A stretch of DNA of 42,407 nucleotides from Gammaproteobacteria bacterium (GTDB lineage Bacteria; Pseudomonadota; Gammaproteobacteria; Pseudomonadales; Azotimanducaceae): assembly GCA_028821125.1 (NCBI GenBank), contig JAPPHD010000054.1:1-42407 (forward strand). Direction: 5' to 3'. The notes beneath the pieces are model-generated. The model ran no database searches. It was given only the letters and a program-made list of their open reading frames with translations, and was not told the DNA's origin. This document shows, in pieces, positions 18,348 through 42,407 of this stretch. Position 1 is the first letter of the stretch; the number at the start of each line of letters is the position of its first letter. Made by a program: the position numbers and the translations under genes.

Positions 18348-20189
18348 ATGACTGACTTGCTTCGAAACCACGGGCTTTTCGCGCTGGCCATAGCGGGGGC
18401 TGTTTTTCTGACGGGTTGCGCGGAGCCGGACGATGCGCCGGATGCGGGGCCGCAGGCAGTGACAGAGGCGGGGGCTGCCGGAACCGAGGCCGAAGCGACC
18501 GGCCAGGATGCGTCGGCTGCGGTGCTGGCGATGGCGGATCAGGTCATGGCCGACCTGGAGGACGCCTCGCCCTATCTGCAACTGCTCAAGGGGCGGCGCG
18601 TCGAGTCGCTGGGGGACAACAGCTTCGCCCATGTCGAGGCGCAGGCGGAGAAGGCTCGCACCGCGCTGGAGGAACTGCAGGCGATCGATGCGTCAAAGCT
18701 CGGCCACGACGATGGGATCACCTACGCGATCCTCGCGAGCGTGCTGCAGGACGCTACCGAATACCCGCAACACTTCTGGCACAAGTTCAACGTCACGCCC
18801 TATGCGGCGGGTTCGGTCTTCAGTTCAATGCTACCTTCGGCGCTGGCGACATACAGCATCGAGTCGGAAACGGACGGCGAAGGCTACCTGGGCCTGCTGC
18901 GGGACATCGGCCGCTACGTGAACGATGACCTGGCGCGGCTCAAGGGACAGGAAGAGCGGGGCATCCTGTTGCCCAAGCCCGCTATTCCCGGGGCCAGGAA
19001 GGTGTACGAAGCGTTGCGCGCGGGCATCGGCAATCAGGCGGCGGTTGCCCCGGAGCGGCTTTCCGCGCTGACCGACGAGCAGCAAACCAAGCTGAACGCG
19101 GGCATTGAGTCGGCCGTCGCCGAACAGGTGATTCCGGCCGTCGATGCGCTGCTCGAGTACATGGGCGATGACTATCTCGAGCGCGCTCCCGAGGCGGTTG
19201 GCCTCGGCCAGTACCCGGGCGGCGAGGCGGCTTACCGGTTCGCCATCCGCCAGGAAACCACCATGGACCTCGACCCCGGGGACATCCACGAGCGCGGCCT
19301 CGCCTACATGGCGGACATCCAGCGGCAGATGCAGGCGATCCGGTACGAACTGGGGTTCGAGGGAACGGCGGAGGAGTTTCACGATCAGATGCGCCAGGAT
19401 CCCCGCTTCTACGCGGAAACACCCGCACAGGTGGAAGAGCGCTACATGGCCTATATCCGGGAAATCGAGCCCCGCATCCCCGATTACTTCTCGGTGCTGC
19501 CCGAGGCGCCCTACGGCGTCAAGCGCCTCGACCCGGCGGCGGAACCGGGCATGACCTTCGGTTTCTACCAGCCGCCCAACGCGGCAAGCCCGCGCGGCAA
19601 CTACCGCTACAACGGCTCCAAGCTCGAGAGCCGCCCCATGGTCTGGACCGGCCCGCTCATCTTCCACGAGCTGGTTCCGGGCCACCACTTCCATATCGCC
19701 CTGCAGCGCGAGACCGAGGCGAGCACCGAACTGCGCAACCTCTCGAGCCTCTTCTACGCCGCCTTCACCGAGGGCTGGGCCAACTACGCCGCGAGCCTCG
19801 CCCTGGAGATGGGCATTCTGGACGACCCCTACGAGCGCTACGGCTGGCTGCTCTTCGATGCCTTCATAGCCAACCGCCTGGTGGTGGATACCGGCATGAA
19901 CCACTTCGGCTGGCCGCGGGAGAAGGCGATGACCTACATGCTCGCGAACACCTTCTCCAGCGAAGAGGAGACCGCCACGGAAACCCTGCGCTACTCCACC
20001 GACATGCCGGCCCAGGCGCTGGCCTACAAGCTCGGCCTGGAGAAGATCCGGGAACTGCGCGCCGCCCAGGAGGCGAAGCTGGGCGACGGGTTCGACATCC
20101 GCACGTTCCACGCCGCCGTCCTCGGCAGCGGCGCCATGCCCCTGCCGGTGCTGGAGGAGCATGTGGACTGGACCATGAGCCGGCACTGA
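18348..20189 (+). CDS. DUF885 family metallopeptidase-like lipoprotein
   Basis: A 613-residue DUF885 protein. It starts with a lipoprotein signal (Cys24 after FLTG), then an Ala/Glu/Asp-rich linker to about residue 55 and the DUF885 domain. The likely metal site is H440-E-L-V-P-G-H446-H447, a variant of the HExxH idea conserved in this family. A conserved downstream segment reads FTEGWANYAASLALEMG and supplies the usual Glu. ATG 18348 follows GGAG at 18339-18342. Family members are annotated as putative peptidases, with little biochemistry known. Its position between a TonB receptor and an S9 peptidase on one strand (36 bp to the next gene) supports periplasmic peptide breakdown. Confidence 0.88.
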   Translation: MTDLLRNHGLFALAIAGAVFLTGCAEPDDAPDAGPQAVTEAGAAGTEAEATGQDASAAVLAMADQVMADLEDASPYLQLLKGRRVESLGDNSFAHVEAQAEKARTALEELQAIDASKLGHDDGITYAILASVLQDATEYPQHFWHKFNVTPYAAGSVFSSMLPSALATYSIESETDGEGYLGLLRDIGRYVNDDLARLKGQEERGILLPKPAIPGARKVYEALRAGIGNQAAVAPERLSALTDEQQTKLNAGIESAVAEQVIPAVDALLEYMGDDYLERAPEAVGLGQYPGGEAAYRFAIRQETTMDLDPGDIHERGLAYMADIQRQMQAIRYELGFEGTAEEFHDQMRQDPRFYAETPAQVEERYMAYIREIEPRIPDYFSVLPEAPYGVKRLDPAAEPGMTFGFYQPPNAASPRGNYRYNGSKLESRPMVWTGPLIFHELVPGHHFHIALQRETEASTELRNLSSLFYAAFTEGWANYAASLALEMGILDDPYERYGWLLFDAFIANRLVVDTGMNHFGWPREKAMTYMLANTFSSEEETATETLRYSTDMPAQALAYKLGLEKIRELRAAQEAKLGDGFDIRTFHAAVLGSGAMPLPVLEEHVDWTMSRH

Positions 20190-37985: not shown

Positions 37986-39113
37986 TCAACGCAACAATTC
38001 GAACACCCCGGCGCCGAGGAAATTGCCGATCAGGTATCCGAAAATCCCGCAGAGGATTCCCGGCGTGACCAGTTCATGCCACCCGGAGCGCGCCGCGAGC
38101 GCGGCTGCGGTGGGAGGGCCGAGCACGCAGGCGTTGGAGGCAATGGCCACCTCCCGCGCACTGAAGCCGAACAGGCGGCCGAGGCCGAAGGCGACGGCAG
38201 CGTGCACCGCAATGATCACCAGGGCGAAGAGCATGAGCAGGGGCGCCTGGCGCAGCATGGAGACCAGGTCGACGCCGGCGCCGAACACGCCGAAAAACAC
38301 GTACAGCAGCAGCATGCCCAGCGAAAAGTCGCCCTTCAGCGCCTGCATCGGCCGCCGCGCCAGGTTGGCCACCGCGATGGCGATGAGCGTGATTGCGAGG
38401 ATCGAGAAACGCGACTGCCCGGCCAGGTCCGACAGGCCGACGCCGATGGCGCAGACCGCAAGGCTCAGGCCGAGCGCCAGCCCCATATGGGTCAGATCGG
38501 GGCCATCGGCGGCCGCTTGCCGTTCCGTCCGGGCGACCGGCGCGTCCGCGGGCGCTTTCGATGCATCCCAGCGCGCGAACCAGGCAAAGGCGGGCATCAG
38601 CGACAGCAGCATCAGGTAGGACAGGCCCACGCTCGCTTCCGCCCCGAGCACCACGGCGAAGCGGGTCGGATCCTCCAGCCCCACCACTTTCGAGACCGCC
38701 ACGAAGTTCATGCCGCCCCCGGTATAGCCTCCGGTGATCACCGCGGCCGCCTGGGCGGCCACATCGCCAACGGGCACCAGATGGAAAGCCGTGAAAACGC
38801 CCAGTACCGTCCCCCCGGCGGCAATCAGGAAAGCGAACAGCAGGCGCCCGGTCTCCGCAACGATCAGGCGCAGGTCGGCCTTGAACAGCAACAGCGGGAT
38901 GGACACCATCACGAAGTACTCGGTAACGAAAGAATAGCTTGGGGCCTCCCGGGGAATCAGCCCGAGATTGGAAAGCACGAGTGCCGCGAGGATGATCAGA
39001 ACCGGGGCGGAGACACGGCTCGCCCAGGAAAAGCGCTCCGCCCAGCAGCAAACGCCCACAATCGAAAACAGCAGCGCCACCAGGCCCAGGTGATTGTCGG
39101 CGTCGATCAGCAT
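37986..39113 (-). CDS. DUF819 family membrane protein
   Basis: A 375-residue integral membrane protein with about ten segments, matching the DUF819 (YjcL-like) family. Conserved parts are the SIPLLLFKADLR segment near residue 75, the glycine-rich VITGGYTGGGMNFVAVSKVVG (residues about 123-143) and the final GILCGIFGYLIGNFLG. A polar loop at 186-208 divides the two halves. The fold looks like an inner-membrane carrier with inverted halves; substrates are not established. Being between M19 and GGT genes it is a candidate importer for dipeptides or amino acids released in the periplasm. Confidence 0.85.
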   Translation of the reverse strand: MLIDADNHLGLVALLFSIVGVCCWAERFSWASRVSAPVLIILAALVLSNLGLIPREAPSYSFVTEYFVMVSIPLLLFKADLRLIVAETGRLLFAFLIAAGGTVLGVFTAFHLVPVGDVAAQAAAVITGGYTGGGMNFVAVSKVVGLEDPTRFAVVLGAEASVGLSYLMLLSLMPAFAWFARWDASKAPADAPVARTERQAAADGPDLTHMGLALGLSLAVCAIGVGLSDLAGQSRFSILAITLIAIAVANLARRPMQALKGDFSLGMLLLYVFFGVFGAGVDLVSMLRQAPLLMLFALVIIAVHAAVAFGLGRLFGFSAREVAIASNACVLGPPTAAALAARSGWHELVTPGILCGIFGYLIGNFLGAGVFELLR

Positions 39114-39314: not shown

Positions 39315-40328
39315 TCAGCGCCACACCTGTTCCGCAACCCGCAGGTTGTTGGCGCCGAGCAGGCCCCGTATCGCGTTGTCGTCCCAGCCGAGTTGCACCA
39401 GCCGCTCGGCGATTTCGGGTATTCGCTCCGGCTCCACCATGCGTAGGCCCTTTCCATAGCCTTTCTCGGGCGGAAACAGTTCCGGGTTGTTTTCGACCAG
39501 GTCGTCCAGTTCCGAGGCATCGAATACAAAATCGAGCCCCAGCCCGACATGCTCCGGCCCCACCAGGGAGGCGACGTAGTCGATATGGCGAACGATGGCC
39601 TCCGTGGAATTGTCGTTGTCGCCGAGAAAGAAGCCGATGCCGTTGATGTTGACAACGCCGCCGCTGTTTGCGCAGGCCTCGATCAGGTCGTCCGGGATGT
39701 TGCGCTCGTGGTCCCAGAGCGCGCGCGGGTTGGAGTGGGAGAAGATCACCGGGTCGTTCGAATACTCGATGGCTTCCCGGGCCGTCCGGTAACCGGTGTG
39801 GCTGCAACAGAGCACCATGCCGACCCGCGCCATCTCGTCGATCACGCGCCGCCCGAACCCGGTGAGGCCGGGGTCGTCGTCCTGGCAGCCGCCCCCCAGG
39901 CGGTTGTTGAGGTTGTAGGCGATCAGCATCCAACGGACGCCGAGGGCGTAGTACGGTTCCACCAGCTCTGGCAGGTCGTCCACGGCCACCGCGCCTTCGA
40001 GGTCGAACGCGACGCCCAGCTTTCCCTCCCGCTTGGCGGTGTGGATGTCGCTTACCCTGTTGACCAGCAGGTACCGCTCGGGACGCTGCTTGATCCAGCT
40101 CCGGAACGTGGCCAGCATCTTGAACCCGAAGTGCCAGGGAAACCGGTCGAAGGAGACGTTCAGGCTCACGAACGAAGCACCGCTCTGCCGGTGCCGTTCC
40201 AGTTGGTCAAGGAACTCGACATCGCCGGGGCGCACCGGCATGCAGGCATGGTTGTCCCACACGATGGCATCGGCAAGCAGTTTTCTGGCCCGCTTCGAAT
40301 TGTCGCTGCTCACGGTTTCCGCATTCAT
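39315..40328 (-). CDS. M19 dipeptidase, near-canonical
   Basis: A 337-residue M19 dipeptidase. Metal ligands are mostly present: His27, the bridging Glu111 in DLEG, His177 in CCSHTG, His198 in FSHSN and a late Asp266 in GLGLDF. The Asp of H-x-D is Cys29 (DNHACMP), a change that occurs in a bacterial subgroup. No signal peptide: cytosolic. ATG 40328 follows GGGGAG. It heads the leftward group M19, DUF819, GGT, TonB receptor; a 201-bp gap to DUF819 could hold an internal promoter and contains an 8-bp inverted repeat (39166-39173 / 39192-39199). It should finish dipeptides brought in by the permease. Confidence 0.88.
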   Translation of the reverse strand: MNAETVSSDNSKRARKLLADAIVWDNHACMPVRPGDVEFLDQLERHRQSGASFVSLNVSFDRFPWHFGFKMLATFRSWIKQRPERYLLVNRVSDIHTAKREGKLGVAFDLEGAVAVDDLPELVEPYYALGVRWMLIAYNLNNRLGGGCQDDDPGLTGFGRRVIDEMARVGMVLCCSHTGYRTAREAIEYSNDPVIFSHSNPRALWDHERNIPDDLIEACANSGGVVNINGIGFFLGDNDNSTEAIVRHIDYVASLVGPEHVGLGLDFVFDASELDDLVENNPELFPPEKGYGKGLRMVEPERIPEIAERLVQLGWDDNAIRGLLGANNLRVAEQVWR

Positions 40329-40573: not shown

Positions 40574-40774
40574 ATGCCCTGGCGGGGGCGGTGCTGGACG
40601 CTGCTTCAAATCAAGGAAATCAAACGTGCGCCCTTCAAAGGTATCGGCAAACCCGAGCCCCTCAAGCACGCGCTCGCCGGGTACTGGTCGAGGCACATCG
40701 ACGGCGAACACAGACTGGTCTACAAGATCGACGCTGCCTCTGTGCTCATCGCGCAATTTCATTATCACTATTGA
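40574..40774 (+). pseudogene. yoeB: YoeB-type toxin gene, 5'-truncated
   Basis: The last 47 or so residues align without gaps to the Txe/YoeB ribosome-dependent RNase: [22 protein letters not shown] and the terminal FHYHY keep the catalytic Glu, Arg and His. The first 30 or so residues, including the W-x-x-x-W-x-x-Y helix, are missing. The frame is closed by TGA at 40544-40546, and the possible ATG 40574 adds only unrelated residues. No YefM antitoxin reading frame is found in 40329-40573. Probably a dead remnant. If translated, the loss of the N-terminal dimer region should make it inactive. Confidence 0.75.
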
Positions 40775-40909
40775 TTGAATGGTGAGACCACTCCCTGCGG
40801 CACCGATGCGTGAGTCGGCTGAGGGGCCGCCACCTGAATTGCGTCATGTTGCTATGCGGCGCCTGGCGGTGCTCTTCCATTTGCCCAGTTGGTTCAACCC
40901 GAGTCGACC

Positions 40910-42130
40910 ATGCACTACAGCAACGATCGTATTCTTGTCACCCATGTCGGCAGCCTGCCGCGATCGCCGGCGCTGCTCGACATGCTGGGCAGGATGGAGG
41001 CCGGTGAGGTCGTCGACCGCGGCGAGTTCCGCTCAGAGGTGCTCGCCGGGCTCAGGGAAGCGGTGCGCGAGCAGGCGGCGGCTGGAATCGACATCGCCGG
41101 GGACGGCGAACTGCCGCGCATAGGCTTTTCCTTTTACGCAAAAGACCGGATGACGGGTTTCGGTGGGGAGGCCCAACGCGGCACAGTCACGGATTTCGCC
41201 AAGTTCCCGGGCTATGCGGAACTGGTGGTCAGCCGTTCCGCCGGGCAGTCCAACGCCGGCAAGTCCGCATCGGTATGGGCGACCCCGGAATGCGTGGACG
41301 AAGTGCGCTACGACCCGGAATTGGCCCAGGCCCGGGAGGAACTCGACCTGTTCGAGGACGCCCTCAAGGCCGAAGCGGAGGCGAGCGGCAATTTCACGGG
41401 CACCTTCGTAACGGCCGTCACGCCGGGCATCCTGGCCACCACGCTGCTGCGCAATCCCGAAAACCCGGCGTATGCGCGCGACGAGGACTACGTCTTCGCC
41501 CTGGCCCGGGAACTGCGGCGGGAATACGAATACATCGTCTCCCGCGGCCACATCCTGCAGCTCGATGCCCCGGACCTGGCGCTCGAGCGGCAGATCCTGT
41601 TTGTCGACCGGCCCCTGGAGGAATTCCAGGAGCGCATGGAAGTGCATGTAGCCGCGCTGAACGAAGCGCTGGAAAACATACCCAGGGACAAGGTCCGAAT
41701 GCACGTCTGCTGGGGCAACTGGGACGGGCCGCACAGCGACGATGTCGATCTGGAAGCGATCCTGCCCATCATCTACAAGGCCGAGGTGGGCGGCCTGTCG
41801 CTGGCCTGCGCGAACCCCCGGCACGCCCACGACAACACCTATGAAACCTTCGTCGTGCTCGACGGCACCATCGAGTTCCGGGTCGGTCCCGAGGGGGAGG
41901 AAAAGGTGACGCTCGGAAAATGGGACACCTTCTCATGCCCGCCAGGCGCCTACCGGGGATTCCGGAACGTGGGGGAGGACAACGCCGTTCTGCTCACCGT
42001 GATCACCGGAGCAGTGGATGCGCGTGACGATGTCTGCGTACCTCCCAGCGTCGGCCGGGAGATCGACGATCGCTTCGGTGGCGAGGTGCTCGACGCCTTC
42101 AGGAAGCTCGCGAAGTTCAACGAGGAATAG
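40910..42130 (+). CDS. MetE-like methyltransferase barrel fused to a cupin
   Basis: A 406-residue chimera. Residues 1-305 are a cobalamin-independent methionine synthase-like barrel (THVGSLPR start, GDGE, TAVTPG, HVCWGN with zinc-type His265 and Cys267). The family then expects E-x-x-N-P-R-H-x-H, but here the Glu is Ala299, and after ANPRHAH the sequence becomes a cupin: H305-x-H307-x4-E312-x6-G319 is a complete cupin motif 1, followed by a motif 2 with PPG (344-346) where the His is Arg349. The MetE C-terminal third with the last zinc Cys (TDCG) is gone. ATG 40910 is the natural start. Its methyltransferase activity is doubtful; a new function is possible. Confidence 0.85.
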   Translation: MHYSNDRILVTHVGSLPRSPALLDMLGRMEAGEVVDRGEFRSEVLAGLREAVREQAAAGIDIAGDGELPRIGFSFYAKDRMTGFGGEAQRGTVTDFAKFPGYAELVVSRSAGQSNAGKSASVWATPECVDEVRYDPELAQAREELDLFEDALKAEAEASGNFTGTFVTAVTPGILATTLLRNPENPAYARDEDYVFALARELRREYEYIVSRGHILQLDAPDLALERQILFVDRPLEEFQERMEVHVAALNEALENIPRDKVRMHVCWGNWDGPHSDDVDLEAILPIIYKAEVGGLSLACANPRHAHDNTYETFVVLDGTIEFRVGPEGEEKVTLGKWDTFSCPPGAYRGFRNVGEDNAVLLTVITGAVDARDDVCVPPSVGREIDDRFGGEVLDAFRKLAKFNEE

Positions 42131-42175
42131 CGCAACTGGTATCGGTGTGAGATCAGGTATTACCGGTGGTCCCGT

Positions 42176-42407
42176 CTATGCGAACGAAGTGTCCGGCCCC
42201 GCGGGCACGACCCGCGTGGGATTCAAGATGGCGTGACTGCCGTAGTAGTGCTGCTTGATGTGGTCGAGAAACACGGTATCCGCGATGCCGGGCATCGAAT
42301 GGAGCCGCCGCGTATGGGCCCAGAGGTTGGGGTAGTCGACCAGGCGACGGACATTGCACTTGAAGTGACCGTGGTAGACGGCATCTCATGCCCGGTTCCG
42401 CCGCCGG
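42176..42407 (-). pseudogene. Glutathionyl-hydroquinone reductase, C-terminal fragment
   Basis: From 42385 leftward, 69 residues match the C-terminal domain of the ECM4/YqjG/PcpF family: HFKCNVRRLVDYPNLWAHTR, GIADTV, DHIKQHYYGSH and NPTRVVPAGP before TAG at 42176. These enzymes use glutathione to reduce glutathionyl-hydroquinones. Just upstream in frame is TGA (42386-42388), where the family continues with R-F-D, and the 19 bases to the window end do not read on. So the gene is either broken here or frameshifted. It is convergent with the MetE-cupin gene. Confidence 0.78.

What the first reader, a model, noticed from the sequence alone, without database searches (positions are those of the whole stretch)
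40910..42130. Seamless MetE-like/cupin fusion joined at a shared R-H-x-H motif
The barrel's signature N-P-R-H-x-H becomes, without any linker, the first metal motif of a cupin (H-x-H-x4-E-x6-G). Both parents would contain R-H-x-H at this place, so a deletion between two neighbouring same-strand genes at the shared codons would give exactly this product. The barrel lost its zinc Glu (now Ala299) and the C-terminal zinc Cys; the cupin lost its N-terminal strand and the motif 2 His (now Arg349). The frame is open throughout, so it could be a new enzyme or sensor and not a dead gene.
Basis: partly seen in the sequence, partly recalled or inferred. Interest (0 to 1): 0.72.

Follow-up and report, generated by a model that had tools for sequence, protein, structure and literature searches.

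The report
Two neighbouring genes fused by deletion
A short deletion in one bacterial genome spliced two neighbouring genes into one open frame; close relatives keep them apart and the surroundings are also damaged, so it is most likely a by-product of decay and not a new enzyme.

Summary
The fusion is real in the sequence: window 40910-42130 (+) encodes 406 aa, a truncated MetE-like barrel running without linker into a truncated cupin at R304-H-A-H. The proposed origin is confirmed. All 7 orthologous loci found (L055-L061; L058 and L059 nearly identical) carry two same-strand neighbours, a 400-aa barrel and a 188-aa cupin, 37-68 bp apart. The window equals them minus about 590 bp, joined in codon phase within 41818-41832. 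Only this genome has the fusion (1 of 206 family genomes; 1 of 369 in a class sample). Ala299 and Arg349 are present in all 7 unfused pairs, so the fusion did not cause them. It did remove the barrel's C-terminal 92 residues with the invariant zinc Cys, and the first 86 cupin residues. The locus is damaged elsewhere too: the GntR gene (upstream in 7 of 7 relatives) and BNR gene (6 of 7) are gone, homology resuming 1-3 bp before the ATG, and a truncated yoeB lies there instead. A more degraded copy lies on contig C5. Best reading: a deletion-born chimera in an eroding locus, probably non-functional; its open frame says little because it can be very young.

The parts
40910..42130 (+). fused ORF, 406 aa: MetE-like barrel residues 1-304 followed by H305 to E406, which equal the last 102 residues of a cupin (H305-A-H307 shared by both parents)
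40910..41832 (+). barrel-derived part: matches residues 1-308 of the 400-aa barrel of relatives (87-91% aa identity)
41818..42130 (+). cupin-derived part: matches residues 87-188 of the 188-aa cupin of relatives (89-92% aa identity)
41818..41832 (+). junction, within which the breakpoint cannot be placed; inferred 15-bp direct repeat of the two parent genes in this lineage (3-11 bp in the 7 relatives)
40907..40909 (+). left edge of homology to relatives, 1-3 bp before the ATG; the GntR gene that ends just upstream of this ATG in relatives is absent
40583..40771 (+). truncated yoeB-like toxin gene (profile positions 27-80 of 80) in the 578 bp between the dipeptidase gene and the fusion
39315..40328 (-). 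M19 membrane dipeptidase, also in the L058 and G006 loci
37986..39113 (-). DUF819 membrane protein, syntenic with several relatives
42182..42385 (-). 3' fragment of a glutathionyl-hydroquinone reductase-like gene; in L058 it lies 3.2 kb from the cupin, beyond an S15 hydrolase gene that is absent here

Best explanation
The ORF is a chimera made by one deletion of about 590 bp between two adjacent genes, a MetE-like barrel and a cupin. Both genes encode H-A-H followed by an acidic residue in the same codon phase: the barrel motif NPRHAHE and cupin motif 1 HAHDNTYE. Slippage or short-homology recombination between these stretches removed barrel residues after H307 or so, the intergenic gap and cupin residues 1-86, and left an in-frame join (shown by comparison; the molecular route is inferred). 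The same locus lost its GntR and BNR genes and carries gene fragments on both sides, so the chimera sits in an eroding remnant. Most likely neither half works: the barrel lacks what I infer to be strands 7 and 8 and the invariant zinc Cys, the cupin lacks its first strands, and the native start context is gone (inferred). It stays open because it is young (inferred).
For: Two separate genes in 7 of 7 orthologous loci. The deleted middle (barrel end, gap, cupin start; query L058 5900-6520) matches only a 94-bp cupin piece on C5 and a 71%-identical paralogue on C35 in the own genome (40 of 64 candidates scored). Both halves have similar divergence from relatives, 84.4-85.6% and 86.3-87.6% nt, as expected of one ancestral pair. 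Zinc Cys (DCGF) in 21 of 21 aligned unfused barrels, absent here. GntR gene directly upstream in 7 of 7 relatives and BNR gene in 6 of 7, neither in the window; in the whole own genome the GntR query finds only 22-35% identical proteins. Start context: dG -2.9, matched by 69% of random 17-mers. A colinear, more degraded copy on C5: 147 bp of cupin, then 120 bp of reductase and a further piece, beside a broken IS91-type transposase.
Against: Codon change is strongly constrained on the window branch: omega 0.042 against 0.038 elsewhere on a fixed tree of 8, and a fully neutral branch is rejected (lnL -3381.53 against -3337.47). Much of that branch may predate the fusion, so this shows neither constraint nor decay after it. 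None of the 12 private barrel substitutions falls on the 64 columns invariant in 11 diverse barrels. Ribosome-site test is weak: 2 of 6 relatives tested are also unremarkable (-5.5, 32% of random; range -5.5 to -13.5). Promoter scan is uninformative: 0 found, 0.3 expected. The S15 hydrolase missing downstream is present in only 3 of the 7 relatives (truncated in one; one further contig is too short to tell), so its absence may be old. Loss of folding is argued from anatomy only: both AlphaFold models were poor.
Confidence: 0.8

Rival explanations
1. The fusion is an assembly or binning artefact: the strain has two separate genes and the contig jumps from one to the other.
For: The genome is a draft of 193 contigs and all 12 loci of the named-genome scan are from metagenome-assembled genomes. 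The contig ends 277 bp after the gene; its last 22 bases repeat window 19533-19554 on the other strand and homology to L058 stops where they begin, so its end may be an assembly tip. A second, partial cupin exists on C5.
Against: The inferred shared stretch is 15 bp, shorter than the smallest word sizes usual in assemblers (about 21, recalled), so a graph collapse there is unlikely. The deleted middle was not found on another contig apart from the 94-bp C5 piece and a paralogue; an artefactual jump should leave it somewhere, though the draft is incomplete. The join is exact in codon phase.
Confidence: 0.1
2. The fusion is a functional new protein: a two-domain metal protein in which the cupin replaces the missing barrel strands, perhaps a sensor or an altered dioxygenase or methyltransferase.
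For: Frame open over 1,218 bp; low omega on the branch; the 48 invariant barrel columns before E308 are kept; H-x-H and Glu of cupin motif 1 intact; the cupin still scores above its Pfam cut-off.
Against: Seen in one genome only. Invariant zinc Cys and barrel C-terminus removed; first 86 cupin residues removed. Upstream regulator gone. Only 14 private amino-acid changes on the whole branch allow a very recent origin, so openness carries little weight.
Confidence: 0.06
3. The fusion came from recombination between the barrel gene and the C5 cupin copy, not from a deletion inside one gene pair.
For: The C5 piece matches the window at 72 of 74 bp and carries the Arg codon at the junction.
Against: The C5 piece ends inside the cupin, whereas the window has the complete cupin 3' half followed by the reductase fragment in the order of L058. 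A single deletion needs fewer steps.
Confidence: 0.04

Closest known systems
MetE-like barrel gene in MAGs labelled Pseudomonadales, Gammaproteobacteria and (once) Alphaproteobacteria (Pfam PF01717 Meth_synt_2; NCBIfam PRK04326 is the best but sub-cut-off model)
   Same: Residues 1-308 are 87-91% identical, with H-x-C and NPRHAH motifs kept.
   Different: Relatives are 400 aa with the zinc Cys; the fusion lacks everything after the motif. Ala in place of the zinc Glu is shared by the 7 close relatives and is not a difference.
Adjacent 188-aa single cupin (Pfam PF07883 Cupin_2)
   Same: Last 102 residues 89-92% identical; motif 1 H-x-H-x4-E and the Arg in motif 2 shared.
   Different: Relatives have 86 more N-terminal residues; in the fusion these are replaced by barrel.
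Deletion-derived gene chimeras and pseudogenes in eroding bacterial loci (general knowledge, recalled)
   Same: Short direct repeat at the join, loss of neighbouring genes, degraded second copy.
   Different: The join happens to fall in phase in two histidine motifs, so the frame stays open.

Membership tests
Cobalamin-independent methionine synthase-like barrel (Meth_synt_2) | score above the Pfam gathering cut-off | tested here: not met
   fusion 15.2 bits against 21; separate relative L058 36.7
Cobalamin-independent methionine synthase-like barrel (Meth_synt_2) | zinc ligands H-x-C, Glu, Cys | tested here: not met
   H-x-C present; Glu is Ala (also in 7 of 7 close relatives; Ser or Glu in the more distant ones); Cys of DCGF, present in 21 of 21 aligned unfused barrels, is deleted. 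Ligand columns placed by alignment to 3rpd and 1ypx and by recalled knowledge of MetE
Cobalamin-independent methionine synthase-like barrel (Meth_synt_2) | complete eight-stranded barrel | tested here: inconclusive
   about 92 C-terminal residues deleted; strand count inferred from a low-confidence model of the intact barrel; fusion model unreliable
Cupin_2 | score above the Pfam gathering cut-off | tested here: met
   43.2 bits against 27.2, profile positions 11-69 of 70
Cupin_2 | classical metal set of motifs 1 and 2 (His, His, Glu, His; recalled) | tested here: not met
   motif 2 His is Arg349; same in all 7 unfused relatives, so not an effect of the fusion
Recurrent functional gene fusion | same architecture in more than one genome | tested here: not met
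   1 of 206 family genomes, 1 of 369 class genomes, own genome included in both; 0 of the 12 loci of the GTDB scan; 0 exact junction matches in viral contigs. Metagenome contigs not searched
Recurrent functional gene fusion | expression and stable product | not testable with these tools
   needs RNA or protein

The most novel reading that the evidence does not exclude
Two unrelated metal-binding folds share an in-phase H-A-H codon stretch that lets one deletion make a seamless two-domain protein; the chimera is expressed and its partial barrel packs on the partial cupin to give a stable metal protein, a natural example of fold birth caught at its first step.
Probability: 0.05. Interest if true: 0.65.

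Novelty: new member of a known kind. Interest (0 to 1): 0.18.

Why it matters
It shows how an in-frame chimera can arise when motifs of two unrelated enzymes coincide in codon phase, and it warns that an open, domain-annotated fusion in a draft genome may be a decay product. It also points to a conserved unit (GntR regulator, MetE-like barrel without the zinc Glu, cupin with Arg in motif 2; GntR, barrel and cupin together in 7 of 7 loci) whose function is unknown and worth study in its intact form.

Tried and rejected
Structure prediction: the fusion (16-row alignment) gave mean pLDDT 42 and the intact barrel control (6 rows) 34. Whether the truncated barrel closes stays open; no fold search was run on such models.

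IS91 end: I first took 42176-42385 for the end of an IS91-like element. Translation and matches to solved glutathionyl-hydroquinone reductases and related transferases showed it to be a gene fragment; Pfam found nothing.

Downstream loss: I first counted the missing S15 hydrolase as erosion. A neighbour check across all seven loci showed it in 3 of 7 only (whole in L058 and L059, truncated in L061; absent from L055, L056 and L060; L057 ends too soon), so I no longer lean on it. The same check strengthened the upstream loss.

Selection test: one search stopped with an error and had the cupin out of frame; its cupin figures are discarded. One search repeats it correctly, on a tree topology that I fixed.

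Chance of the repeat: in 500 codon-shuffled pairs the longest barrel-cupin repeat was 9-14 bp, none in phase with 15 bp or more. But real relatives have other repeats as long (15 bp in L061), so the junction repeat is not exceptional.

Frames: and one query read the yoeB stretch in a wrong frame and found nothing; searches use the right one. The second query (L062, unannotated frame) found nothing and is not used.

Literature: one search bears on the fusion (4 papers hold all three terms, none about it by title or abstract start). Two further searches (10 of 155 listed, 8 of 36 listed) gave nothing I use. Listings only; no paper was read.

Viral contigs: 4 stretches matched a pattern but none encodes a relative; no junction match.

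Full report
What is there. Window 40910-42130 (+) is an open frame of 406 codons. Residues 302-364 match Cupin_2 above its cut-off; residues 11-93 match Meth_synt_2 below its cut-off. The junction is A299-C-A-N-P-R-H-A-H-D-N-T-Y-E, with no linker.

Origin. A search of 58 whole genomes found, in a genome of the same genus (G006), the two halves as two separate open frames on one strand. DNA alignment shows window 40907-41832 matching the barrel gene (85.5%) and 41818-42132 matching the cupin gene (86.3%), overlapping at the histidine codons. In 206 family genomes (own included) one, the window's own, has the continuous match and five have the two halves in separate frames. A scan of one genome per species (GTDB 220) gave 12 loci: 7 with the pair and 5 in which only a 54-56% identical cupin stretch matched. 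In all 7 the barrel is 400 aa from the orthologous ATG, the cupin 188 aa, and they are 37-68 bp apart. In a sample of 369 genomes over the class (own included) no other fusion was seen. As far as searched, the fusion is derived and unique.

The junction. The common stretch of the two parents is 3-11 bp in the 7 relatives. In the window lineage it is inferred to be 15 bp, because the degraded cupin on contig C5 has an Arg codon where relatives have Leu. The offset between the two stretches is 591 bp in L058, L059 and L061 and 586-617 bp in the other four. Both parents have the same codon phase there, so the product is in frame whatever the exact length.

What the fusion did and did not change. 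Ala in place of the zinc Glu, and Arg in cupin motif 2, are present in all 7 unfused pairs; they are old. More distant barrels have Glu or Ser at that column. The Cys of DCGF is present in 21 of 21 unfused barrels aligned: L061, L055 and 19 of 20 search loci taken; L009 gave no frame with the motif and was left out, and other barrel hits were not aligned. Alignment to solved relatives 3rpd and 1ypx places it opposite a conserved Cys, the zinc ligand by recalled knowledge of MetE. The fusion deletes it. Of 64 columns invariant in 11 diverse barrels, the fusion keeps the first 48 and deletes or changes the last 16 (from E308 on).

Surroundings. In L058 the order is DUF819, M19 dipeptidase, BNR-repeat protein, GntR regulator, barrel, cupin, S15 hydrolase, then a glutathionyl-hydroquinone reductase fragment. 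Across the 7 loci the GntR gene is upstream in 7, BNR in 6 (L055, where it was not found, is a short contig), S15 in 3 (truncated in L061; L057 too short to tell) and the reductase fragment in the same 3. In L058 and L061 the regulator ends 2 bp before the barrel ATG. The window keeps DUF819, M19 and the reductase fragment in L058 order, but GntR and BNR are gone; 578 bp containing a truncated yoeB (profile 27-80 of 80) stand there, and homology resumes 1-3 bp before the ATG. S15 is absent too, but that may be old. In the own genome the GntR query finds only 22-35% identical proteins and the S15 query 31-46%. Contig C5 carries a colinear, more degraded copy: 147 bp of cupin, 120 bp of the reductase fragment and a further piece, next to a broken IS91-type transposase. 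The locus is thus being eroded, and the fusion is one of the events.

Is it alive? A codon model on a fixed tree of 8 sequences gives omega 0.042 for the window branch and 0.038 elsewhere; a fully neutral window branch is rejected. This is a result against long-term decay. But the branch includes the time before the fusion. The window carries 12 barrel and 2 cupin amino-acid changes at sites where the 7 relatives agree. The reductase fragment took 4 changes (1 more unassigned) in 120 bp on the window side since it parted from C5. At that rate about 40 changes would be expected in 1,218 bp without constraint, most of them changing an amino acid (inference). So either the fusion is younger than the C5 split or it has been constrained; I find the first simpler. 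The start context is weak (dG -2.9; six relatives -5.5 to -13.5, two of them unremarkable); the promoter scan says nothing (0 found, 0.3 expected). Structure prediction was uninformative, the intact control included.

Artefact? The inferred 15-bp repeat is short for an assembly collapse, and the missing middle was not found elsewhere in the draft (40 of 64 candidates scored). The contig does end 277 bp later with a 22-bp repeat, so read evidence is still wanted.

Verdict. The observation and the proposed origin are right. The proposed novelty, a new enzyme or sensor, is not supported. It is, as far as searched, a singleton deletion chimera in an eroding locus.

Noticed in passing
window 40583-40771: Truncated yoeB-like toxin gene (last two thirds) upstream of the fused ORF, where relatives have GntR and BNR genes.
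   Followed up: partly
L030 7622-8551 (contig C5): Degraded colinear copy of the same locus: cupin piece joined to reductase piece over an 8-bp overlap, beside a broken IS91-type transposase.
   Followed up: yes
window 42386-42407: Last 22 bases of the contig are identical to window 19533-19554 on the other strand, and homology to L058 stops where they begin; possible assembly tip.
   Followed up: partly
L058 4297-6812: Conserved GntR, MetE-like barrel without zinc Glu, and cupin with Arg in motif 2, in 7 of 7 loci of MAGs labelled Gamma- and (once) Alphaproteobacteria; function unknown.
   Followed up: partly
L019 883-1947; L027 1288-2346: Proteins of about 350 aa with cupin motifs lie near more distant MetE-like barrels (1.6 kb in G002, 5.7 kb on C35 of the own genome), so barrel-cupin neighbourhood may recur in other forms.
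   Followed up: no
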